A stretch of DNA of 38,465 nt from a bacterium (GTDB taxonomy: Bacteria; Sumerlaeota; Sumerlaeia; MVZB01), in contig JAJFUE010000006.1 of the NCBI GenBank assembly GCA_021372575.1, forward strand, positions 1-38,465, read 5' to 3'. Under the pieces are notes generated by a model. The model made no database searches, had not been told where the DNA came from, and saw nothing but the letters and a program-made list of their open reading frames with translations. Made by a program: the position numbers and the translations under genes. Below, piece by piece: positions 8,934-19,358 of the stretch (its first letter is position 1; each line of letters begins with the position of its first letter).

Positions 8934-9746
8934 TTATTCCGCGTCGTCCGATGATGCGGAGCCGCGGCCGAGCGGGATGACGCCGCGCTTGCTGGTCTTG
9001 AAGAATTCGACCAGCTCGCGGCCCTCGGGGCTGAGGCTTTCAACGTCGATCGCCGCCAGCGCCTCGGTGCGCGTCATGTCTTTCCGATAAATCTCGTGCA
9101 ACAGGCGCTTGAGTTCAGAGCGCACCGCCGCACCGATCCCAGCGCGGCGCAGGCCGACCAGGTTCAGCCCGTGCACACAGGCCTGATAGCCCGTCGTAAG
9201 CGTAAATGGCGGGACGTCCTGCGTGAGTCGGCTCAATCCGCCCGCCATCACCAAACGCCCGATGCGGCAGAATTGATGAATCGCCGCGTTGCCTGAAATG
9301 AACGAGCGGTCGCCGACGGTGACGTGCCCGGCAAGCAGCGCGCCGTTGGCCATGATCACGTTGTTGCCGACCTGGCAGTCGTGCGCGATGTGCGACGACC
9401 CCATGAAGAAACAGTCGTCGCCGATGCGGGTCGTGTGCTCCATGTCGAGCGCGCGGTGGATGCTGACGTATTCGCGGATGTGGTTGCGCGCGCCGATGAC
9501 CAGTTTCGTCGGTTCGCCCTTGAATCCCAGGTATTGCGGCGGAAAGCCGAGCGTCGCGCCGGTATAGACGACGTTGTCCGGTCCCATTTCGGTCGAGCCC
9601 TGGATGTGCACCATCGGGCCGATTTTCGTGCGGTCGCCGATGCGGACCAGGTCCTCGATAATCGCGTTGGGCCCGATTTCGACATCTTCGCCCAGTTCGG
9701 CCTTGGGACTCACGATGGCGGTCGGGTGAATTTTTGTTGGGCTCAT
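8934..9746 (-). CDS. lpxA: UDP-N-acetylglucosamine acyltransferase LpxA
   Basis: 270 aa, the usual length. It catalyses the first step of lipid A synthesis, transfer of 3-hydroxyacyl from ACP to UDP-GlcNAc in the cytoplasm. Hexapeptide repeats of the left-handed beta helix begin at residue 5 (IHPTAIVSPKAELGEDVEIG). The catalytic His is His122 in SHIAHDCQVG (His125 in E. coli). The LTTGYQACVHGLNLVGLRR stretch is diagnostic of LpxA against other hexapeptide transferases. A helical C-terminal domain (about 195-250) is followed by a short Ser/Asp tail. The start codon overlaps the rpiB stop by 4 nt, so the two are translationally coupled. No lpxD, fabZ or lpxC is adjacent, unlike the usual lpx cluster. 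Confidence 0.95.
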   Translation of the reverse strand: MSPTKIHPTAIVSPKAELGEDVEIGPNAIIEDLVRIGDRTKIGPMVHIQGSTEMGPDNVVYTGATLGFPPQYLGFKGEPTKLVIGARNHIREYVSIHRALDMEHTTRIGDDCFFMGSSHIAHDCQVGNNVIMANGALLAGHVTVGDRSFISGNAAIHQFCRIGRLVMAGGLSRLTQDVPPFTLTTGYQACVHGLNLVGLRRAGIGAAVRSELKRLLHEIYRKDMTRTEALAAIDVESLSPEGRELVEFFKTSKRGVIPLGRGSASSDDAE

Positions 9747-10198
9747 TTTGTGTGCTTCTGTTCGTAGGTCGTGATCTTGTCGATGCGCCGCTGGTGGCGG
9801 CCTTCGCCGGGGAAAGCTGTTTCAACGAACGCGTCGGTGATGGCGATCGCCTCGCGCTCGCTGACGTAATCGCCGCCGAGCGAAAGGACCTGCGCTCCGT
9901 TGTGCTCGCGGGCCTTCTTCGCCATCTCGACGGAGAGGCACAACGCCGCGCGAATGCCCGGCACCTTGTTGGCGGCGATCTGCTCGCCGTTGCCCGAGCG
10001 CCCGAGCACGATGCCGAGGCTGCCCGGATCGGCAACGACCGCCTCCGCCATCGGGATGATGAAATCGGGGTAGTCGTCGTCGTTGTCCATGACGGTGTTG
10101 CCCATGTCGCGCACGTCGTGGCCGGCCGCGGCCAGGTGCTGCCTGATCATTTCCTTGTAGGCAAACCCGCCGTGGTCGGAAGAAAGATAGATGCGCAT
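9743..10198 (-). CDS. rpiB: Ribose-5-phosphate isomerase B (RpiB/LacAB family)
   Basis: 151 aa. It interconverts ribose-5-phosphate and ribulose-5-phosphate in the pentose phosphate pathway. The N-terminus MRIYLSSDHGGFAYK holds the phosphate/ring-opening Asp-His. The active-site loop is GRSGNGEQIAANK with Ser68 and Glu72. This matches the actinobacterial type, in which Glu is the base, rather than the Cys-containing E. coli type. The RAALC and REHNGAQVLSLGG motifs follow the family. GAGG precedes the ATG by about 9 nt. It overlaps lpxA by 4 nt and lies 118 nt downstream of the leuB-like gene on the same strand, with two tandem arrays filling the gap. Confidence 0.93.
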   Translation of the reverse strand: MRIYLSSDHGGFAYKEMIRQHLAAAGHDVRDMGNTVMDNDDDYPDFIIPMAEAVVADPGSLGIVLGRSGNGEQIAANKVPGIRAALCLSVEMAKKAREHNGAQVLSLGGDYVSEREAIAITDAFVETAFPGEGRHQRRIDKITTYEQKHTK

Positions 10199-10222
10199 GC
10201 TTATTCGCCCTCGTGGTTTAAG

Positions 10223-10275
10223 TTCGTACTCGTGCTCGTGCTCGTGCTCGTAATCGTAATCGTAATCGTAATCGA
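10223..10275. repeat. Hexamer array, family A (minus orientation)
   Basis: Read on the minus strand this is TTCGAT, (TACGAT)x3, TACGAG, (CACGAG)x3, TACGAA: a 6-nt tandem array that changes from TACGAT units to CACGAG units along its length. Similar arrays lie at 18961-18997, 34096-34149 and 35395-35424, with a decayed one at 32698-32723. It sits between leuB and rpiB. Confidence 0.85.
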
Positions 10276-10282
10276 AATGATT

Positions 10283-10310
10283 TCACGATCCACGATTCAC
10301 GATCCACGAT
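10283..10310. repeat. Heptamer array, family B
   Basis: Four 7-nt units, TCACGAT and CCACGAT alternating, directly beside the family A array and next to the leuB stop codon. Other family B copies are at 25304-25352 and, inverted, at 27001-27028. Confidence 0.85.
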
Positions 10311-10316
10311 ATCCCC

Positions 10317-11429
10317 TCACACCCGCTCCGCGACCAAGTCTCCAACCTCTCTCGTCCCGTATCCCATCCTGCCGGCGGCGAGGCTCTTGAGCTTCGTCGC
10401 GATGACGTCCTTGACCGCGTTCTCGATGGCCTCGGCCGCGGCGGTCTCGCCGAGCGTGTCGAGCATCATCCCGCCGGCGCAGATCGCCGCGATCGGATTG
10501 ATGACGTTCTGGCCGGTGTATTTCGGCGCGGAGCCGCCGATCGGCTCGAACATCGAAACGCCACCCTTGTCCGGGTTGATGTTGCCGCCGGCGGCGACGC
10601 CCATGCCGCCCTGAATCATCGCGCCCAAGTCGGTGATGATGTCGCCGAACAGGTTGCCGGTCACGATCACGTCGAACCACTCGGGGTTCTTCACGAACCA
10701 CATCGTGGTGGCATCGACGTGCGTGTAGGCGCGCTTGATGTCGCCATATTGCGCGCCCATCTCGTGGAAGGCGCGCTCCCACAGGCCATAGACGTAGGTC
10801 AGGACGTTGGTCTTGCCGCACAACGTGAGCTGGCCGATCTGGCCGGCCTTGCGGTCGGCATCAGTCAGGCCCTTCCACGCGGACTTGGCGTGGCGCTTGC
10901 GCGTGTAATCGAACGCGTATTTCAGGGCGCGATCGACGCCGAAGCGCGTATAGACGCTCGTCTGCGTGGCGACTTCCTGCGGCGTGCCCTCGTGCATGAT
11001 CCCGCCCATGCCGGTGTAAATATCCTGGCTGTTTTCGCGGATGACGACGAAGTCGATGTCCTCGGGGCCCTTGCCCTTGAGCGGCGTCTCGACGCCCGGG
11101 TAAAGCTTGACCGGCCGCAGATTGATATACTGATCGAGCGCGAAGCGCGCCTTGAGCAGAATGCCCTTCTCCAGGATGCCGGGCTTGACGTCCGGGTGGC
11201 CGATCGCCCCCAAAAAGATCGCGTCGAATTTCTTGAGCTCTTCGATCGCCGAGTCCGGCAGCGTCTCGCCGGTGCGCAGGTAACGCGCCCCGCCGAAATC
11301 GAACGCCTGCGTCTCGATTTTGAAACCGTATTTGGACTGCGCGGCCTGAAGGACCTTGAGCCCCTCGGCCACGACTTCCGGCCCGGTGCCGTCGCCGCCG
11401 ATCACTGCGATCTTGTAAGTCTTGCCCAT
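10317..11429 (-). CDS. leuB: Isopropylmalate/isocitrate dehydrogenase family enzyme, probable LeuB
   Basis: 370 aa NAD(P)-dependent beta-decarboxylating dehydrogenase, most likely 3-isopropylmalate dehydrogenase of leucine synthesis. The start is the ATG at 11429, with GGAG 7 nt upstream; an upstream extension is not family-like. Seen: [17 protein letters not shown], substrate loop [20 protein letters not shown], catalytic Tyr in [10 protein letters not shown], Lys in CGKTNVLTY, and metal-binding Asp in [15 protein letters not shown]. The nucleotide loop reads [15 protein letters not shown]. In E. coli isocitrate dehydrogenase the same Lys-Tyr pair sets NADP preference, while classic LeuB has HGSAPDIAG, so cofactor and substrate are open. 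No leuC, leuD or leuA lies nearby. Tartrate or isocitrate dehydrogenase are the alternatives. Confidence 0.85.
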
Positions 11430-11549: not shown

Positions 11550-11735
11550 TCATGGTTCGGGAATTTCGAGGTCGCGGCAGATCTTGCGCGCCGTAAAGTC
11601 GAGAACATCCCTGTGCCTCGGCACCGTTGAACATTTTCGATTGGCTGGATTGAAGTAGATCGTGTGATTGCCACCTTCGCGAAGAAAGAGGCACCCATGC
11701 GCTTCGAGATGCCGGATGAGGTCCTGTCTCTTCAT
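11550..11735 (-). CDS. hicA: HicA-type toxin (mRNA interferase)
   Basis: 61 aa, the typical HicA size and dsRBD-like fold. The N-terminal KRQDLIRHLEAHGCLFLREGG leads to the catalytic His24 in GGNHTIYFN, followed by STVPRHRDV, the family's conserved PRH segment. Family members cleave mRNA in the absence of antitoxin. Its ATG shares one base with the hicB stop (TGATG), so it is translated by coupling after the antitoxin. Confidence 0.88.
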   Translation of the reverse strand: MKRQDLIRHLEAHGCLFLREGGNHTIYFNPANRKCSTVPRHRDVLDFTARKICRDLEIPEP

Positions 11736-11950
11736 CAGGCGGGCAACTCGAGGTTTTCACGAATGACGTCTTCGCCGCCGAGAGATTCTTCGGATAATTT
11801 TCGGTTGGCTTCCAGAATGAGCACGACGGCCTCGACCAGATTGGCGCGCGCTTCTTCCAACGTCGCCCCCTGGGTGTTCGCCCCCGGCAGTTCTTCCACG
11901 AACGCCGCATAGCCTTCGGGGAATTTTTTATAGACAGCGGTCAATGTCAT
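11735..11950 (-). CDS. hicB: HicB-type antitoxin
   Basis: 71 aa, with the HicB partial RNase H-like fold: EGYAAFVEELPGANTQGATLEEARANLVEAV, the core motif of the family. There is no C-terminal DNA-binding domain (the protein ends at ENLELPA), so it belongs to the short type and autoregulation may be weak. GAGG lies about 9 nt before the ATG. It is upstream of hicA, the reverse of the common hicA-hicB order. Confidence 0.88.
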   Translation of the reverse strand: MTLTAVYKKFPEGYAAFVEELPGANTQGATLEEARANLVEAVVLILEANRKLSEESLGGEDVIRENLELPA

Positions 11951-12020: not shown

Positions 12021-12092
12021 TCCCATTCTTCCCATACTTCCCATTACTCCCATCGGTCCTTTTCGTCCTTTGGGTCCCGTTGGTCCTTTACT
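12021..12092. repeat. Nine-nt periodic array, family D
   Basis: Eight 9-nt units each starting with TCC: four TCCCAT-type units, then TCCTTT- and TCCCGT-type units. It fills the gap between hicB and the first membrane paralog and overlaps that gene's stop codon. Shorter copies are at 15307-15342 and 25038-25073. Confidence 0.75.
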
Positions 12093-13074
12093 CAACCCGA
12101 TGAAGCTCCAGTTGGTCGTCTTCTTCGGTCATGAACAGCTCCTGAAAATACGGCTCGCCATCGCCCACATACCGCACATAATATTCGTCCACGATCTCAT
12201 CCAGCTTCCGCGCCGCAAACCGGCATTCCCACACGCACGCACTGACCAGGATCACCAGCCACGGCCAGAAAAACCGCACTCCACCCAACAACACGAACGA
12301 GCACATCAGCGTCATCGGCAGCGCCAGCCACAGCTTCTCGAGCACCAGTCCCTCGCGCCGAATCCTGCTGCGGCCCGTCTGTTCGATCAGTTTCGCATAC
12401 AAATTCCTCATCCCGAGCGCGACGATGAACGTCCTCCGGCACACGACGGCGCCGATCGCCACGAAGATCACGAGAAGCCCGATATGAATCGGCCAAACAA
12501 ATTGCGGAAACCGCTGCGAGACGTACCACTTCGTGACGAACATGAAGAACGCCATCACGGCGCACAGCAGCAGCGCCAGCGCGGCCGCGTAGCGCTTCCA
12601 GTGCCGGTAATACACCACCGCGCTCGCCCCGAGCAGGTTGCTGAACCGCATCGGCGTGAGGTAAAGCTGCTCCATTTTGACCGCCGCGCGTTCCTCGAGC
12701 ACATCGATCGGCTCGGCGATCTCGCCCACCTTCTTCTTGAAGATCAGTTTGTGCAGCGCCCGCTCAATGAGGCACAACCCCAGCACGAGCAGCGACACGT
12801 AATATGGATACAGCAGCAGGAACGTGACAACGCCGCCGATCCACCCCGCGCTCCACACGAACTCCCCGACCGGAATCCGCCGCGCGCGCAATCCGCGCCG
12901 CCGCTTCATCACGAAGTAATCGGTCAACGGATGATCCGCCGCGATCGCGATCCCCGGCCACCGTTTCGCCAAAGCATCAACAGCCCCAACCGCAACCGGG
13001 TGCTCCACATACTTAACGCCCCAGGTGATTTTCGGATAATCCGCCCGTGAAATATTGAATTTTGCTCGAGCCAT
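12088..13074 (-). CDS. Unrecognised six-TM membrane protein, paralog 1
   Basis: 328 aa. It is one of three tandem diverged paralogs (with 13238-14248 and 14230-15195). Shared features: an N-terminal cytosolic motif ending WPGIAIAADHPLTDYFV; a first TM hairpin (about residues 67-105); a motif before TM3 reading MEQLYLTPMRFSNLLGA; a long second half with four more TM segments; and an acidic/aromatic C-terminus. The LYLTPMRF piece resembles the (L)LLTPLSPREI motif of ABC-2-type permeases, and six TM segments fit that fold, but no ATPase gene is adjacent. Function unknown. GGAG lies 5 nt before the ATG. This copy is the most divergent. Its stop codon lies inside a 9-nt repeat array. Confidence 0.75.
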   Translation of the reverse strand: MARAKFNISRADYPKITWGVKYVEHPVAVGAVDALAKRWPGIAIAADHPLTDYFVMKRRRGLRARRIPVGEFVWSAGWIGGVVTFLLLYPYYVSLLVLGLCLIERALHKLIFKKKVGEIAEPIDVLEERAAVKMEQLYLTPMRFSNLLGASAVVYYRHWKRYAAALALLLCAVMAFFMFVTKWYVSQRFPQFVWPIHIGLLVIFVAIGAVVCRRTFIVALGMRNLYAKLIEQTGRSRIRREGLVLEKLWLALPMTLMCSFVLLGGVRFFWPWLVILVSACVWECRFAARKLDEIVDEYYVRYVGDGEPYFQELFMTEEDDQLELHRVE

Positions 13075-13139
13075 GCTCACTCCAAAACCCGCGTGACTTC
13101 CCCGCGCCCGATCAGCCGGGAAATCATTGCGCCATATTT

Positions 13140-13246
13140 GAACCGCGAAGCGGTTCGATCTCAAAGCCGGGGGTTGGTTCGGAGAACTTGATCGACGAAC
13201 CTACCCCCGGTCGCATCCTCCACATTTCAGAACCGGTTTACCGGTT
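13140..13246. repeat. REP-like multi-hairpin element, copy 1
   Basis: Three adjacent inverted repeats: a small hairpin 13140-13156 (GAACCGC GAA GCGGTTC); a large one 13167-13210 with 15-nt arms (CCGGGGGTTGGTTCG ... CGAACCTACCCCCGG, one mismatch); and AACCGG TTTA CCGGTT at 13231-13246. The third contains the end of paralog 2 (stop at 13238-13240). A matching small plus large pair lies at 15227-15299 in the same orientation. Confidence 0.75.
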
Positions 13247-14248
13247 CGATCTTCCATCCATTCCAACTCGACATTCAAGATTGACGTCCGTATTGCGCCC
13301 AATCAGCCGGGAAACCTTTCGATCATATTCGGGAGTTTCGTCCTTGACGAAAAATGCGAATTCCCGATCCAGATCCGGCTTGTTGAACCGCCCCCATAGA
13401 TAAATCCCGACACTCAAGGCAACAAGCATGATTTCGAGAAAGATCCAGATCCATCCCCCCATAATCGGCTGAAACATGTTCCATAAATAGAATACCCAGA
13501 AAAGCAAGATCAACATAGTTCCAGCCCATTGCGCGTTGCCCTTTTGTCGGAGCCAGGACCCTGTTGCAGCCCGAGTATCAATATCGGCAACTTTAATGTC
13601 ATGCAGCCTGTTTTTGAGTAGGAATACCGGATCGCGCAGAAAGTAATAGACGCTCACGCATACGATGAGAATGCATGCCCAGACCGCCACCGCATGCCCA
13701 GCAGGTATGGAGAACGTCTTGAACACACGACCTGTTAAATAAACCAGAAACAATGCGATCACGGAGACAACCAGATTGTTCAAGTATTTTGCAGAGCTAC
13801 TCGAACGTGAACAATAGACCCATCCAAGGTAAATCCCCGCGTAATCCCGGAATCTGACGGGCGTCAACCATAACTGTTCCATCTGGGATTTGTCACCCCC
13901 GGCCGTCATCAGATGGAACGGTGAATAGATATCACGCGTTTTTACCAATCTCTTCGTTTTCTCCCATAAATAAAAAGCGCATACGACTGCAATCCAGATG
14001 AGAAAGTGAAACTGAAAGGGCGTGAAATGGAACCCCAGCCAGAGTCCGGCCATTAAAAGCGCAATACACGAAAGTTTTTTACAGTCCTCCCACAACACTC
14101 GTCGTTCCACCACCCGCCACCGCCGAACGAAAAACTCCGTCAACGGATGATCCGCCGCCTCCCCCACCGCCGGCCACCGCGATTTGAGATCGGCGATCGC
14201 GGCGGCAACTGCGGGGTCTTCGATGAAATTTATTTCTGGTCGGTGCAT
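13238..14248 (-). CDS. Unrecognised six-TM membrane protein, paralog 2
   Basis: 336 aa. Same architecture as its neighbours: N-terminal DPAVAAAIADLKSRWPAVGEAADHPLTEFFV (about residues 11-41), two TM segments (about 60-95), the motif QMEQLWLTPVRFRDYAGIYLG (about 121-141), four further TM segments, and a C-terminal LDREFAFFVKDETPEYDRKVSRLIGR that is near-colinear with paralog 3. The start overlaps the end of paralog 3 by 19 nt, so the two are probably co-translated; no strong ribosome site is seen. The last residues and stop are written by the inverted repeat AACCGG TTTA CCGGTT, which suggests that a repeat landing changed the C-terminus. Confidence 0.75.
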   Translation of the reverse strand: MHRPEINFIEDPAVAAAIADLKSRWPAVGEAADHPLTEFFVRRWRVVERRVLWEDCKKLSCIALLMAGLWLGFHFTPFQFHFLIWIAVVCAFYLWEKTKRLVKTRDIYSPFHLMTAGGDKSQMEQLWLTPVRFRDYAGIYLGWVYCSRSSSSAKYLNNLVVSVIALFLVYLTGRVFKTFSIPAGHAVAVWACILIVCVSVYYFLRDPVFLLKNRLHDIKVADIDTRAATGSWLRQKGNAQWAGTMLILLFWVFYLWNMFQPIMGGWIWIFLEIMLVALSVGIYLWGRFNKPDLDREFAFFVKDETPEYDRKVSRLIGRNTDVNLECRVGMDGRSNR

Positions 14249-15195
14249 GCGATGCCGGATTTGTCGCGATTCATGAGCCGGGAAACCAGCTCATTGTAAC
14301 TGCTCGATTCCGTTTCAACGAATTCGTTGAAATACCGGTCCAATTCCCGCGTTTGCATGCTGCGGGCCCAGCCATAAATGCTCAGGCCCGAAGCCAACAG
14401 GATGAAATCGAGCACGAACCAATACAAGGGTGCAACGAGCATGAGAATGATTGCAATGATCATCGCGCCAATTAGATACGCAACAATAACGCTGTTGCGG
14501 GAATCGAGAACGGTTTCATCAAGGAGAGCCTTCTGGCGCAGTCGCTCCACCCTGATTTGCTGCAGGGCCGAATGTAACATGAAGGCCGGTATCGATAACG
14601 AGAAACATACCGAAGCACCAAAAACGATAAGGCATATCCAGGCGGCGATCATATTTGGAACAGATGCCGATGACGAGTTGATGATCCTGTTGAACACCCA
14701 AACCAACGCGAGGATTAAACCCCAGAACACGATTCTTCTCACGATCCGAACGCGTGGATTGAAAATGTGATCGTAAATGCAGCCCAGATGAATCCCCGCG
14801 CAGTCGCGATACGTAATGGGTGTCAGCCAGAGCTGCTCGAGCTGTCCGGCGTCGCCCTCGCGTAACAACAGATGGCGCAGGTTGCGGATGTTGCTCTGCT
14901 TTCGGCGTATGATGATCCGCCTTTCGATCGCGCCGACAATGGAACCAGCCACATAAATCAATCCGTGCAAGTATCTTGGCAAAAACCAATAGAGTGTACT
15001 CAAAGCAATCAGATACACCAGGATTCTTGCAAGAAGCGCACTGTACCGTGACCAATCAGTCCTTTGCTTGTTCGATTGGTGGCGGATGAACCATTCGGTG
15101 AGCGGGTGGTCGGCCGCTTCCCCAATCGCCGGCCACCACGTCTTGAGGTCGTCAATCGCCCGCGCGATTTCAGGGTCTCCAATATATTGCGCCAC
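14230..15195 (-). CDS. Unrecognised six-TM membrane protein, paralog 3
   Basis: 321 aa, first gene of the three-paralog set. N-terminal DPEIARAIDDLKTWWPAIG then EAADHPLTEWFIR (residues 7-38); TM1-2 at about 50-88; QLEQLWLTPITYRDCAGIHLG at about 117-137; TM3-6; and C-terminal TRELDRYFNEFVETESSSYN with SRLMNRD. The repeated cytosolic motif before TM3 and the conserved N- and C-terminal acidic/aromatic motifs argue for one common function kept in all three copies, perhaps as a hetero-oligomer (inference). No enzyme active site or known domain is recognised. Confidence 0.75.
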   Translation of the reverse strand: MAQYIGDPEIARAIDDLKTWWPAIGEAADHPLTEWFIRHQSNKQRTDWSRYSALLARILVYLIALSTLYWFLPRYLHGLIYVAGSIVGAIERRIIIRRKQSNIRNLRHLLLREGDAGQLEQLWLTPITYRDCAGIHLGCIYDHIFNPRVRIVRRIVFWGLILALVWVFNRIINSSSASVPNMIAAWICLIVFGASVCFSLSIPAFMLHSALQQIRVERLRQKALLDETVLDSRNSVIVAYLIGAMIIAIILMLVAPLYWFVLDFILLASGLSIYGWARSMQTRELDRYFNEFVETESSSYNELVSRLMNRDKSGIACTDQK

Positions 15196-15226: not shown

Positions 15227-15299
15227 TTGAACCGCGAAGCGGCTCAATCTCGAAACCGGGGATTGGTCCGGCGACCTTGTTCGCCAAACCAACCCCCGG
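15227..15299. repeat. REP-like double-hairpin element, copy 2
   Basis: A small hairpin 15227-15247 (TTGAACCGC GAA GCGGCTCAA, one mismatch) and a large one 15256-15299 (CCGGGGATTGGT ... ACCAACCCCCGG, one mismatch) with the same spacing and orientation as at 13140-13210. It lies between the start of paralog 3 and the end of sppA. Confidence 0.75.
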
Positions 15300-15306
15300 T
15301 ATTACA

Positions 15307-18813: not shown

Positions 18814-18960
18814 GGGGGGTGATCTCGGTGAACGCGCGTGATGAGAATACAAGCTTCTCCAACTATTTCTATGAATACACGCCCTCTTTGTCAACCGCTA
18901 TGGCCGGCGGCCATTGGCGCAGCGCCGCGGCCCATCGGCATCCATTTGTTGATTGGTTAA

Positions 18961-18997
18961 TCGATTACGATTACGATTACGAGCACGAGCACGAACG
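18961..18997. repeat. Hexamer array, family A
   Basis: TCGAT, (TACGAT)x2, TACGAG, CACGAG, CACGAA. It ends 2 nt before the GAGGAGG ribosome site of the HIT gene, so it is probably in that gene's 5' leader. Confidence 0.85.
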
Positions 18998-19010
18998 AGG
19001 AGGCAGCACC

Positions 19011-19358
19011 GTGACCGACAATATCTTCCTGAAGATCGCGCGGCATGAAATCCCGGCCAACATCGTCTTCGAGGACGACCGCGTCGTCGCCTTCAAGGAC
19101 ATCAACCCGCAGGCCCCCGTGCACATCCTGATCATCCCGCGCACCGAGGCCATCCCGACGCTCAACGACCTCAAGCCCGAGAACAAGGACCTCGTCGGCC
19201 ACATGTTCCTGGTCGCGAAGAAACTGGCCGCGGAGTTCGGCATCGCGGAGGACGGCTACCGCTGCGTGATCAACTGCAACGAGGGCGCCGGCCAGAGCGT
19301 GTTCCAGCTCCACATGCACGTTCTCGGCGGCCGGCCGATGGGGTGGCCCCCCGGCTGA
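19011..19358 (+). CDS. HIT-family (HinT-like) purine nucleotide hydrolase/transferase
   Basis: 115 aa, the standard HinT size. IFLKIARHEIPANIVFEDD and the C-terminal MGWPPG are typical of the HinT/PKCI branch, which hydrolyses nucleoside phosphoramidates. The active-site triad, normally H-x-H-x-H, reads Gln99-Leu-His101-Met-His103. The middle His, the nucleophile in the family, is kept, but the first His is Gln. Activity may be altered or preserved. The start is GTG at 19011 with AGGAGG 7 nt upstream; the longer upstream frame runs through a hexamer repeat and is rejected. A strong terminator follows. Confidence 0.92.
   Translation: MTDNIFLKIARHEIPANIVFEDDRVVAFKDINPQAPVHILIIPRTEAIPTLNDLKPENKDLVGHMFLVAKKLAAEFGIAEDGYRCVINCNEGAGQSVFQLHMHVLGGRPMGWPPG

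What the first reader, a model, noticed from the sequence alone, without database searches (positions are those of the whole stretch)
12088..15195. Three tandem copies of an unrecognised membrane protein family with an ABC-2-like motif
All share DLKxxWPAxGEAADHPLTExF at the N-terminus, a cytosolic QLEQLWLTPxxYRDYAGI-type motif before TM3, six predicted TM segments and, in two, a C-terminal LDRxFxxFV...SRLxxR motif. The LTP motif recalls ABC-2 permeases, but no ATPase is present. Strong divergence with motif retention suggests distinct subunits of one complex, a possible undescribed transporter or membrane-remodelling system.
Basis: partly seen in the sequence, partly recalled or inferred. Interest (0 to 1): 0.58.

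Follow-up and report, generated by a model that had tools for sequence, protein, structure and literature searches.

The report
Orphan membrane protein family, tandem arrays
Three neighbouring bacterial genes belong to a previously unnamed family of inner-membrane proteins that multiplies in tandem (up to eleven genes in a row in a related genome); despite one look-alike motif they do not appear to be ABC-2 transporter subunits, and what they do is still unknown.

Summary
In detail: three tandem minus-strand genes (15195-14230, 14248-13238, 13074-12088) encode related polytopic membrane proteins, though the third keeps the motifs only in degraded form. They are 3 of 8 copies in this genome. 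Profiles built here extend the family to 12 of 40 genomes of the phylum (one weakly), including an 11-gene tandem array. No hit lay outside the class among 386 genomes. Neither Pfam nor NCBIfam describes the window proteins.

The ABC-2 reading is not supported. Against ABC-2 permeases of the same class, profile comparison gives 0.1-2.6% probability (reversed controls 0.1-1.0%), whereas family subgroups match each other at 95-99%. Architecture differs: a cytosolic TM4-TM5 loop of about 40 residues (ABC-2: 10), a long C-terminal tail, little room for re-entrant helices. ABC ATPases beside copies are no commoner than chance and belong to other transporters.

Conservation lies in the cytosolic N-terminal segment and TM2-TM3 loop, while membrane helices drift. 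I infer membrane anchors that dock a shared cytosolic partner (not shown). Rivals: immunity-type arrays like TsaI, or a permease with its ATPase in trans. The structure prediction failed (pLDDT 48), so the fold is open.

The parts
14230..15195 (-). Gene 1 (P0003), 321 aa, polytopic membrane protein of the family; GTG start
13238..14248 (-). Gene 2 (P0002), 336 aa; overlaps the end of gene 1 by 19 nt (translational coupling inferred)
12088..13074 (-). Gene 3, 328 aa from ATG 13074 (mechanical ORF starts at TTG 13164); most diverged of the three
15088..15150 (-). Gene 1 N-terminal cytosolic motif DLKTWWPAIGEAADHPLTEWF
14129..14191 (-). Gene 2 N-terminal cytosolic motif DLKSRWPAVGEAADHPLTEFF
12913..12975 (-). 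Gene 3 N-terminal motif, degraded: ALAKRWPGIAIAADHPLTDYF
14794..14841 (-). Gene 1 TM2-TM3 cytosolic loop motif LEQLWLTPITYRDCAG
13835..13882 (-). Gene 2 TM2-TM3 cytosolic loop motif MEQLWLTPVRFRDYAG
12628..12675 (-). Gene 3 TM2-TM3 loop motif MEQLYLTPMRFSNLLG
13104..13138 (-). Intergenic piece matching the 3' end of gene 2 (28 of 35 bases); probable remnant of a lost fourth copy
   Evidence: 0 of 1000 shuffles reach 28
13138..13211 (.). 74-nt dispersed repeat between genes 2 and 3 (not specific to the family)
15227..15300 (.). Second copy of the 74-nt repeat (84%), just upstream of gene 1

Best explanation
The three genes are tandem members of a class-restricted family of inner-membrane proteins with six transmembrane helices arranged as three hairpins, both ends in the cytosol. 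They are not ABC-2 permeases. Shown here: homology within the family, its multi-copy and tandem nature, its restriction to one class in the genomes searched, the charge-based topology, and the fact that conservation sits in the cytosolic N-terminal segment and the TM2-TM3 loop while the membrane helices drift. Inferred: the two conserved cytosolic elements form one docking surface for a partner shared by all copies, and the membrane sector mainly anchors and spaces, or carries copy-specific contacts. New copies arise by tandem duplication, diverge fast in the membrane part and keep the docking surface. I put about 0.85 on the identity part (new family, not ABC-2) and about 0.4 on the docking-adaptor mechanism; the partner is unknown.
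For: Homology: family profile A2 finds 8 copies in this genome at E 3.6e-77 or better (all 8 were rows of the profile, so the independent evidence is the single-protein search, E 1.4e-236 to 2.5e-5). Subfamilies match each other at hhalign probability 95.4-99.3%, reversed controls between subfamilies 1-3%. Phylum: 12 of 40 genomes positive taken over; G009 has 11 genes in a row at C3:111416-123857, most of them overlapping or nearly so. Regional conservation: mean column identity of the N-tail 0.38 / 0.60 / 0.37 and of the first loop 0.25 / 0.21 / 0.31 in A2 / A4 / A5, against 0.14-0.17 in every membrane pair. TM to non-TM conservation ratio 0.64-0.78 in the family, 0.92-1.19 in three ABC-2 alignments of the same class. 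Topology: Lys+Arg per segment, median 11/1/8/1/9/1/10 in the 17 proteins with six called helices. Purifying selection: dN/dS 0.083; N-terminal block pS 0.64 against pN 0.31 over 55 pairs of the G009 array.
Against: No partner was identified: neighbours differ from locus to locus, so the docking idea rests on conservation alone. The structure model is too poor to show a surface (pLDDT 47.7). In gene 3 and in the C97 and C133 copies the loop motif is degraded. Membrane helices of any family tolerate hydrophobic swaps, so lower identity there is partly expected; the ABC-2 control answers this only in part. Only 17 of 40 proteins give exactly six helices by the simple scan.
Confidence: 0.45

Rival explanations
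1. Degenerate ABC-2-like permeases whose TM2-TM3 loop is a coupling helix that docks on an ABC ATPase encoded elsewhere and shared by all copies.
For: Six helices, both ends in; an N-terminal cytosolic segment; a motif at the coupling-helix position, xEQLWLTPxxxRD, resembling the VREREIGTLEQLMVTPLRPVELMLGK motif of true ABC-2 exporters of the class. The best local match of A2 to the exporter profile g1 is exactly there (24 columns). ABC ATPases lie near 4 of 29 family places.
Against: Probability 2.6% at best, and the reversed exporter control aligns overlapping columns at 1.0%. TM4-TM5 loop about 40 residues against 10, C-tail 53-72 against 7, TM5-TM6 loop 19-21 against 38. Another subfamily reads DLWLAGAxGRExLEAxYLE, further from ABC-2. 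About 2 nearby ATPases are expected by density (57 in 4.63 Mb; 179 kb of flank); three of the four are Opp/Dpp-type with oligo_HPY, and the fourth is on the opposite strand beside its own ABC-2 permease. TM helices are not conserved as in transporters.
Confidence: 0.12
2. Immunity-type array: each copy protects the membrane against a variant of a membrane-active toxin, as proposed for TsaI (DUF443) in Staphylococcus aureus; constant N-terminal part for a common partner, variable rest for the toxin.
For: Close formal analogue: tandem, non-identical polytopic membrane genes, 2 to 16 copies, one conserved block at the N-terminal end, variable remainder (PMC9484751, passages read). Our arrays show 2, 3 and 11 copies with a conserved N-terminal block. 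Gene 1 has a sub-threshold hit to DUF443 (E 0.5).
Against: No toxin or secretion gene was recognised beside the arrays (not every neighbour was scanned). A dispersed copy is kept as an orthologue between two species at the same place beside tRNA pseudouridine synthase B (L074 and L082) with dN/dS 0.083, which I would not expect of a typical immunity gene.
Confidence: 0.15
3. Lineage-specific paralogues with little or no selected function of their own: copies arise by duplication, drift and decay.
For: Long terminal branches (median 1.19 changes per site); a probable remnant of a lost copy between genes 2 and 3; patchy presence (12 of 40 genomes); third-position GC of the dispersed G000 copies 0.58-0.79 against 0.8-0.9 for most neighbours.
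Against: dN/dS 0.083 in the one unsaturated orthologous pair; motifs kept over very long distances; 8 copies in G000 and 13 matches in G009, most with open frames.
Confidence: 0.13
4. Hetero-oligomeric complex in which the tandem copies are fixed, distinct subunits.
For: 19-nt overlap of genes 1 and 2, operon-like spacing in the G009 array.
Against: Copy number varies from 1 to 11; dispersed copies nest inside the window trio in the tree, and each array is its own clade (G009 array 100/100, G010 trio 97/90), so no subunit types are shared between these genomes.
Confidence: 0.1

Closest known systems
ABC-2 permeases (type V ABC transmembrane domains: Wzm, TarG; Pfam PF01061, PF12679)
   Same: Six helices, N and C termini in the cytosol, N-terminal cytosolic segment, LxxTP-like motif in the TM2-TM3 loop
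   Different: No profile similarity; loop lengths differ, with little room for re-entrant helices between TM5 and TM6 (type V definition read in passages of PMC8386196 and PMC11971408); no dedicated ATPase; membrane helices not conserved
TsaI (DUF443) immunity arrays of Staphylococcus aureus
   Same: Tandem strings of divergent polytopic membrane proteins with one conserved N-terminal block (PMC9484751, passages)
   Different: TsaI is predicted to have five helices and follows its toxin gene; here six helices, no toxin seen, and many dispersed single copies; no significant sequence match
CysZ/EI24, PIG-F, DUF1129, DUF6773, DUF3169 (weak Pfam hits)
   Same: Multi-helix membrane proteins
   Different: The window hits are all below curated cut-offs and each family is matched by 1 or 2 of 40 members only; treated as hydrophobic background

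Membership tests
ABC-2 permease (type V ABC transmembrane domain) | Sequence profile similarity to known members | tested here: not met
   hhalign 0.1-2.6% against three ABC-2 alignments; positive controls 86-99%; no ABC2 family among the 25 Pfam families shown of 42 for 40 members at E<=1
ABC-2 permease (type V ABC transmembrane domain) | Six helices, N-in and C-in | tested here: met
   Charge pattern 11/1/8/1/9/1/10 in the 17 of 40 proteins with six called helices; the other 23 gave 4, 5 or 7
ABC-2 permease (type V ABC transmembrane domain) | Re-entrant helices between TM5 and TM6; short TM4-TM5 link and short C-tail | tested here: not met
   Median 21, 44 and 72 residues in the 17 six-helix proteins, against 38, 10 and 7 in 27 ABC-2 proteins; loop lengths only, no structure
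ABC-2 permease (type V ABC transmembrane domain) | Coupling helix in the TM2-TM3 loop | tested here: inconclusive
   Motif at the right place; match of 24 columns at 2.6%, reversed control 1.0% on overlapping columns
ABC-2 permease (type V ABC transmembrane domain) | Cognate ABC ATPase encoded with it | tested here: not met
   None beside the window genes; 4 of 29 places, about 2 expected, none a recognisable ABC-2 partner on the same strand. An ATPase in trans cannot be tested
ABC-2 permease (type V ABC transmembrane domain) | Type V fold | tested here: inconclusive
   AlphaFold2 with three sequences gave pLDDT 47.7, pTM 0.40; not searched against structures because the model is unreliable
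TsaI / DUF443 immunity proteins | Match to the DUF443 model | tested here: not met
   E 0.5, 10.6 bits against a cut-off of 26.2, gene 1 only
TsaI / DUF443 immunity proteins | Toxin gene beside the array | tested here: inconclusive
   None recognised among the neighbours looked at; not every neighbour was scanned, and orphan arrays without a toxin exist (PMC9484751)

The most novel reading that the evidence does not exclude
A class-restricted system of membrane anchors in which one conserved cytosolic face (the N-terminal WP...HPLTE or FPxWxRRLDP segment plus the LWxTP / LWxAG loop) recruits a single shared machine to many diversified membrane sectors, with repertoires of up to 13 copies per genome built by tandem duplication.
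Probability: 0.3. Interest if true: 0.6.

Novelty: new variant of a known kind. Interest (0 to 1): 0.38.

Why it matters
It removes a tempting but unsupported label (ABC-2 permease) from a family that the libraries searched here do not cover, and gives profiles and motifs to annotate it. If the docking reading is right, a bacterial class diversifies membrane anchors around one constant cytosolic interface, and the partner could be found by a simple pull-down with the N-terminal segment.

Tried and rejected
ABC-2 membership: rejected on profile, loop architecture and gene neighbourhood. ATPase beside copies: at first promising for contigs C47 and C133 of this genome and G028:C24, but all three are Opp/Dpp-type ATPases with oligo_HPY; the fourth (G010:C530) lies beside an ABC-2 permease on the other strand.

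Structure: one AlphaFold2 job on the three window proteins, pLDDT 47.7; no fold search was made on so weak a model. PDB sequence searches gave only chance-level hits for A2 (best E 0.078) and anoctamin helices at E 0.009 for A5, taken as background for hydrophobic profiles.

Distribution outside the class: pattern scans of genome contigs and viral contigs, and plasmid and phage searches, found nothing; the two wide genome searches scored only 5 candidates per genome. The organism and phylum could not be named.

The 74-nt repeat as the duplication unit of the family: rejected, it has at least 40 near-full-length copies over many contigs. Literature: five searches gave no paper on this family in the listings; the strings DHPLTE, EQLWLTP and DLWLAGA occur in no held paper. 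Most subscription papers and all bioRxiv preprints are missing from that library. Three papers were read in passages only: PMC9484751, PMC11971408, PMC8386196.
Full report
Observation. The window holds three consecutive minus-strand genes for related membrane proteins. Gene 1 (15195-14230) and gene 2 (14248-13238) overlap by 19 nt; gene 3 most likely starts at ATG 13074 and ends at 12088. Identities are 32-33% (genes 1 and 2) and 22-27% (gene 3). Upstream lies a S49 peptidase gene (SppA type), downstream a HicB-like gene with a 61-aa HicA-like frame (the HicA label is my reading) and an isocitrate/isopropylmalate dehydrogenase.

Family. Searching the window's own genome (4.63 Mb, 214 contigs) with gene 2 gives 8 copies: the trio, a tandem pair on contig C47 and single copies on C6, C97 and C133. 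A profile of 11 members (A2: these 8 and three of G010) finds again G000 and G010 (three genes in tandem on C530, one on C612, and pieces on C564 and C1001 that may be one split gene) and, weakly, G009. At G009 there is an array of 11 genes, C3:111416-123857, most of them overlapping or separated by a few bases, with an N-terminal motif EPLNDLSxFPRWWRRLFPEIExLxDN and a loop motif DLW[LMQ][TA]P. A profile of seven of these (A4) finds 11 of 40 genomes of the phylum, G032 only weakly; with the window's genome, found by A2, 12 of 40. A third profile (A5, 17 rows: FPxWxRRLDPLLAAEDTNxLFEAFR and DLWLAGAxGRExLEAxYLExR) finds 9 of 386 genomes, all in the same class; A2 finds 3 of 386, all in the same class. 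If all 40 genomes of the phylum were among the 386, about 346 lie outside it. Only 5 candidates per genome were scored in these two searches, so absence elsewhere is likely, not proven. The three profiles are one family: A2-A4 96.9%, A2-A5 95.4-96.3%, A4-A5 99.3%. Gene 2 has no tblastn match in the plasmid or phage collections.

Named families. No window protein reaches a Pfam cut-off; NCBIfam gives one 20-bit hit against a cut-off of 725; PHROGs gives none. Across the 40 members of A6 no Pfam, NCBIfam or PADLOC family is matched by more than two members (for Pfam the first 25 of 42 families were shown). A6 leaves out three odd or partial members (L081, L083, L085) and the L041 piece.

ABC-2 test. 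ABC-2 permeases were taken from the same class through Pfam models PF12679 and PF01061 and aligned in three groups of 17, 10 and 11, chosen by hand from the proteins. Their motif VREREIGTLEQLMVTPLRPVELMLGK does look like MEQLWLTPVRFRDYAGI. Yet hhalign of A2, A4, A5 and A6 against the three groups gives 0.1-2.6% (reversed sequences 0.1-1.0%); the groups find each other at 86-99%. The best match, A2 to the exporter group, is the 24 columns around the motif; the reversed exporter profile aligns overlapping columns nearly as well. Loop lengths (N-tail, five loops, C-tail) are 56/6/55/7/44/21/72 in 17 family members with six called helices, against 40/135/29/13/10/38/7 in 27 ABC-2 proteins (some of the 27 are the same gene met in two searches). 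Type V transmembrane domains have, among other things, an N-terminal elbow or interface helix, a coupling helix and re-entrant helices between TM5 and TM6 (passages of PMC8386196 and PMC11971408); the 21-residue loop leaves little room for these. ABC ATPases were sought by motif within 4 kb of 29 family places: 3 found, and a fourth, missed by that motif, by Pfam. From 57 ATPase matches in 4.63 Mb and 179 kb of flank about 2 are expected (my arithmetic). Three are Opp/Dpp-type; the fourth stands on the opposite strand beside an ABC-2 permease of its own. So the protein is not shown to be an ABC-2 permease, and several defining features are not met. That it might still work with an ATPase in trans is not excluded.

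What is conserved. In all three subfamilies, independently, the N-terminal cytosolic segment (mean column identity 0.38, 0.60, 0.37) and the TM2-TM3 loop (0.25, 0.21, 0.31) stand out; all membrane pairs are at 0.14-0.17, as is the second loop, and the C-tail is at 0.16-0.22. TM to non-TM conservation is 0.64-0.78 in the family and 0.92-1.19 in the ABC-2 groups. In the N-terminal block of the G009 array synonymous differences (mean pS 0.64 over 55 pairs) exceed non-synonymous ones (0.31), so protein-level selection rather than recent gene conversion keeps it, although single pairs (d-e, pS 0.23) may be younger. Two orthologous pairs in one genus give dN/dS 0.083 and 0.182. This pattern argues for a shared cytosolic partner and a membrane sector with little fixed chemistry; the partner and its function are inference.

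History. The tree (40 rows; deep branches long and uncertain) puts the G009 array in one clade (100/100), the G010 trio in one (97/90), genes 1 and 2 as sisters (98/90) with the C6 copy next to them (96/87), and gene 3 as the first branch of six G000 copies (91/85). Copies therefore multiplied separately in each lineage, and dispersed copies nest inside the window's trio. Between genes 2 and 3 a 35-nt piece matches the 3' end of gene 2 at 28 of 35 bases (0 of 1000 shuffles of the piece reach 28), probably the remnant of a lost copy.

Analogue. Strings of TsaI membrane immunity genes in S. aureus (2 to 16 copies, one conserved block over about the first 75 residues, variable remainder; passages of PMC9484751) show the same outward pattern. 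There is no sequence match worth the name (DUF443, E 0.5), no toxin was recognised beside our arrays, and at least one single copy is a strongly conserved orthologue, so I rank this second to the docking model.

Limits. The organism and phylum are unnamed. Helix calls are simple hydropathy, with 17 of 40 giving exactly six.

Noticed in passing
13138-13211 and 15227-15300: A 74-nt repeat with an inner palindrome-like half; 46 matches in the genome, 40 of them near full length at 86-100% identity (93 candidates, 40 scored). Looks like a REP- or MITE-type dispersed element.
   Followed up: partly
11550-11950 (-): HicB-like gene (UPF0150 / HicB_lk_antitox, just under the curated cut-offs) overlapping a 61-aa HicA-like frame, directly downstream of gene 3; the HicA label is my reading of the sequence.
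   Followed up: partly
L040:17307-17999 and L079:13184-13774: Portal_Mu (Mu-like phage portal) genes lie near family members in two genomes of one family, G009 and G034. Chance or a link to a Mu-like prophage is open.
   Followed up: partly
L024 end and L041 start (G010 contigs C564 and C1001): Two family pieces end and begin at contig ends with nearly the same helix sequence; probably one gene split by the assembly, or two close copies.
   Followed up: no
L083, L084, and G036:C240, G028:C50, G030:C47: Further pairs of neighbouring family members in other genomes; not all were added to the alignments.
   Followed up: no
window ORFs 9734-10390 (+) and 18819-19358 (+): These mechanical frames translate to runs such as VLVLVLVIVIVIVI and DYDYDYEHEHE: short simple repeats between genes.
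   Followed up: no
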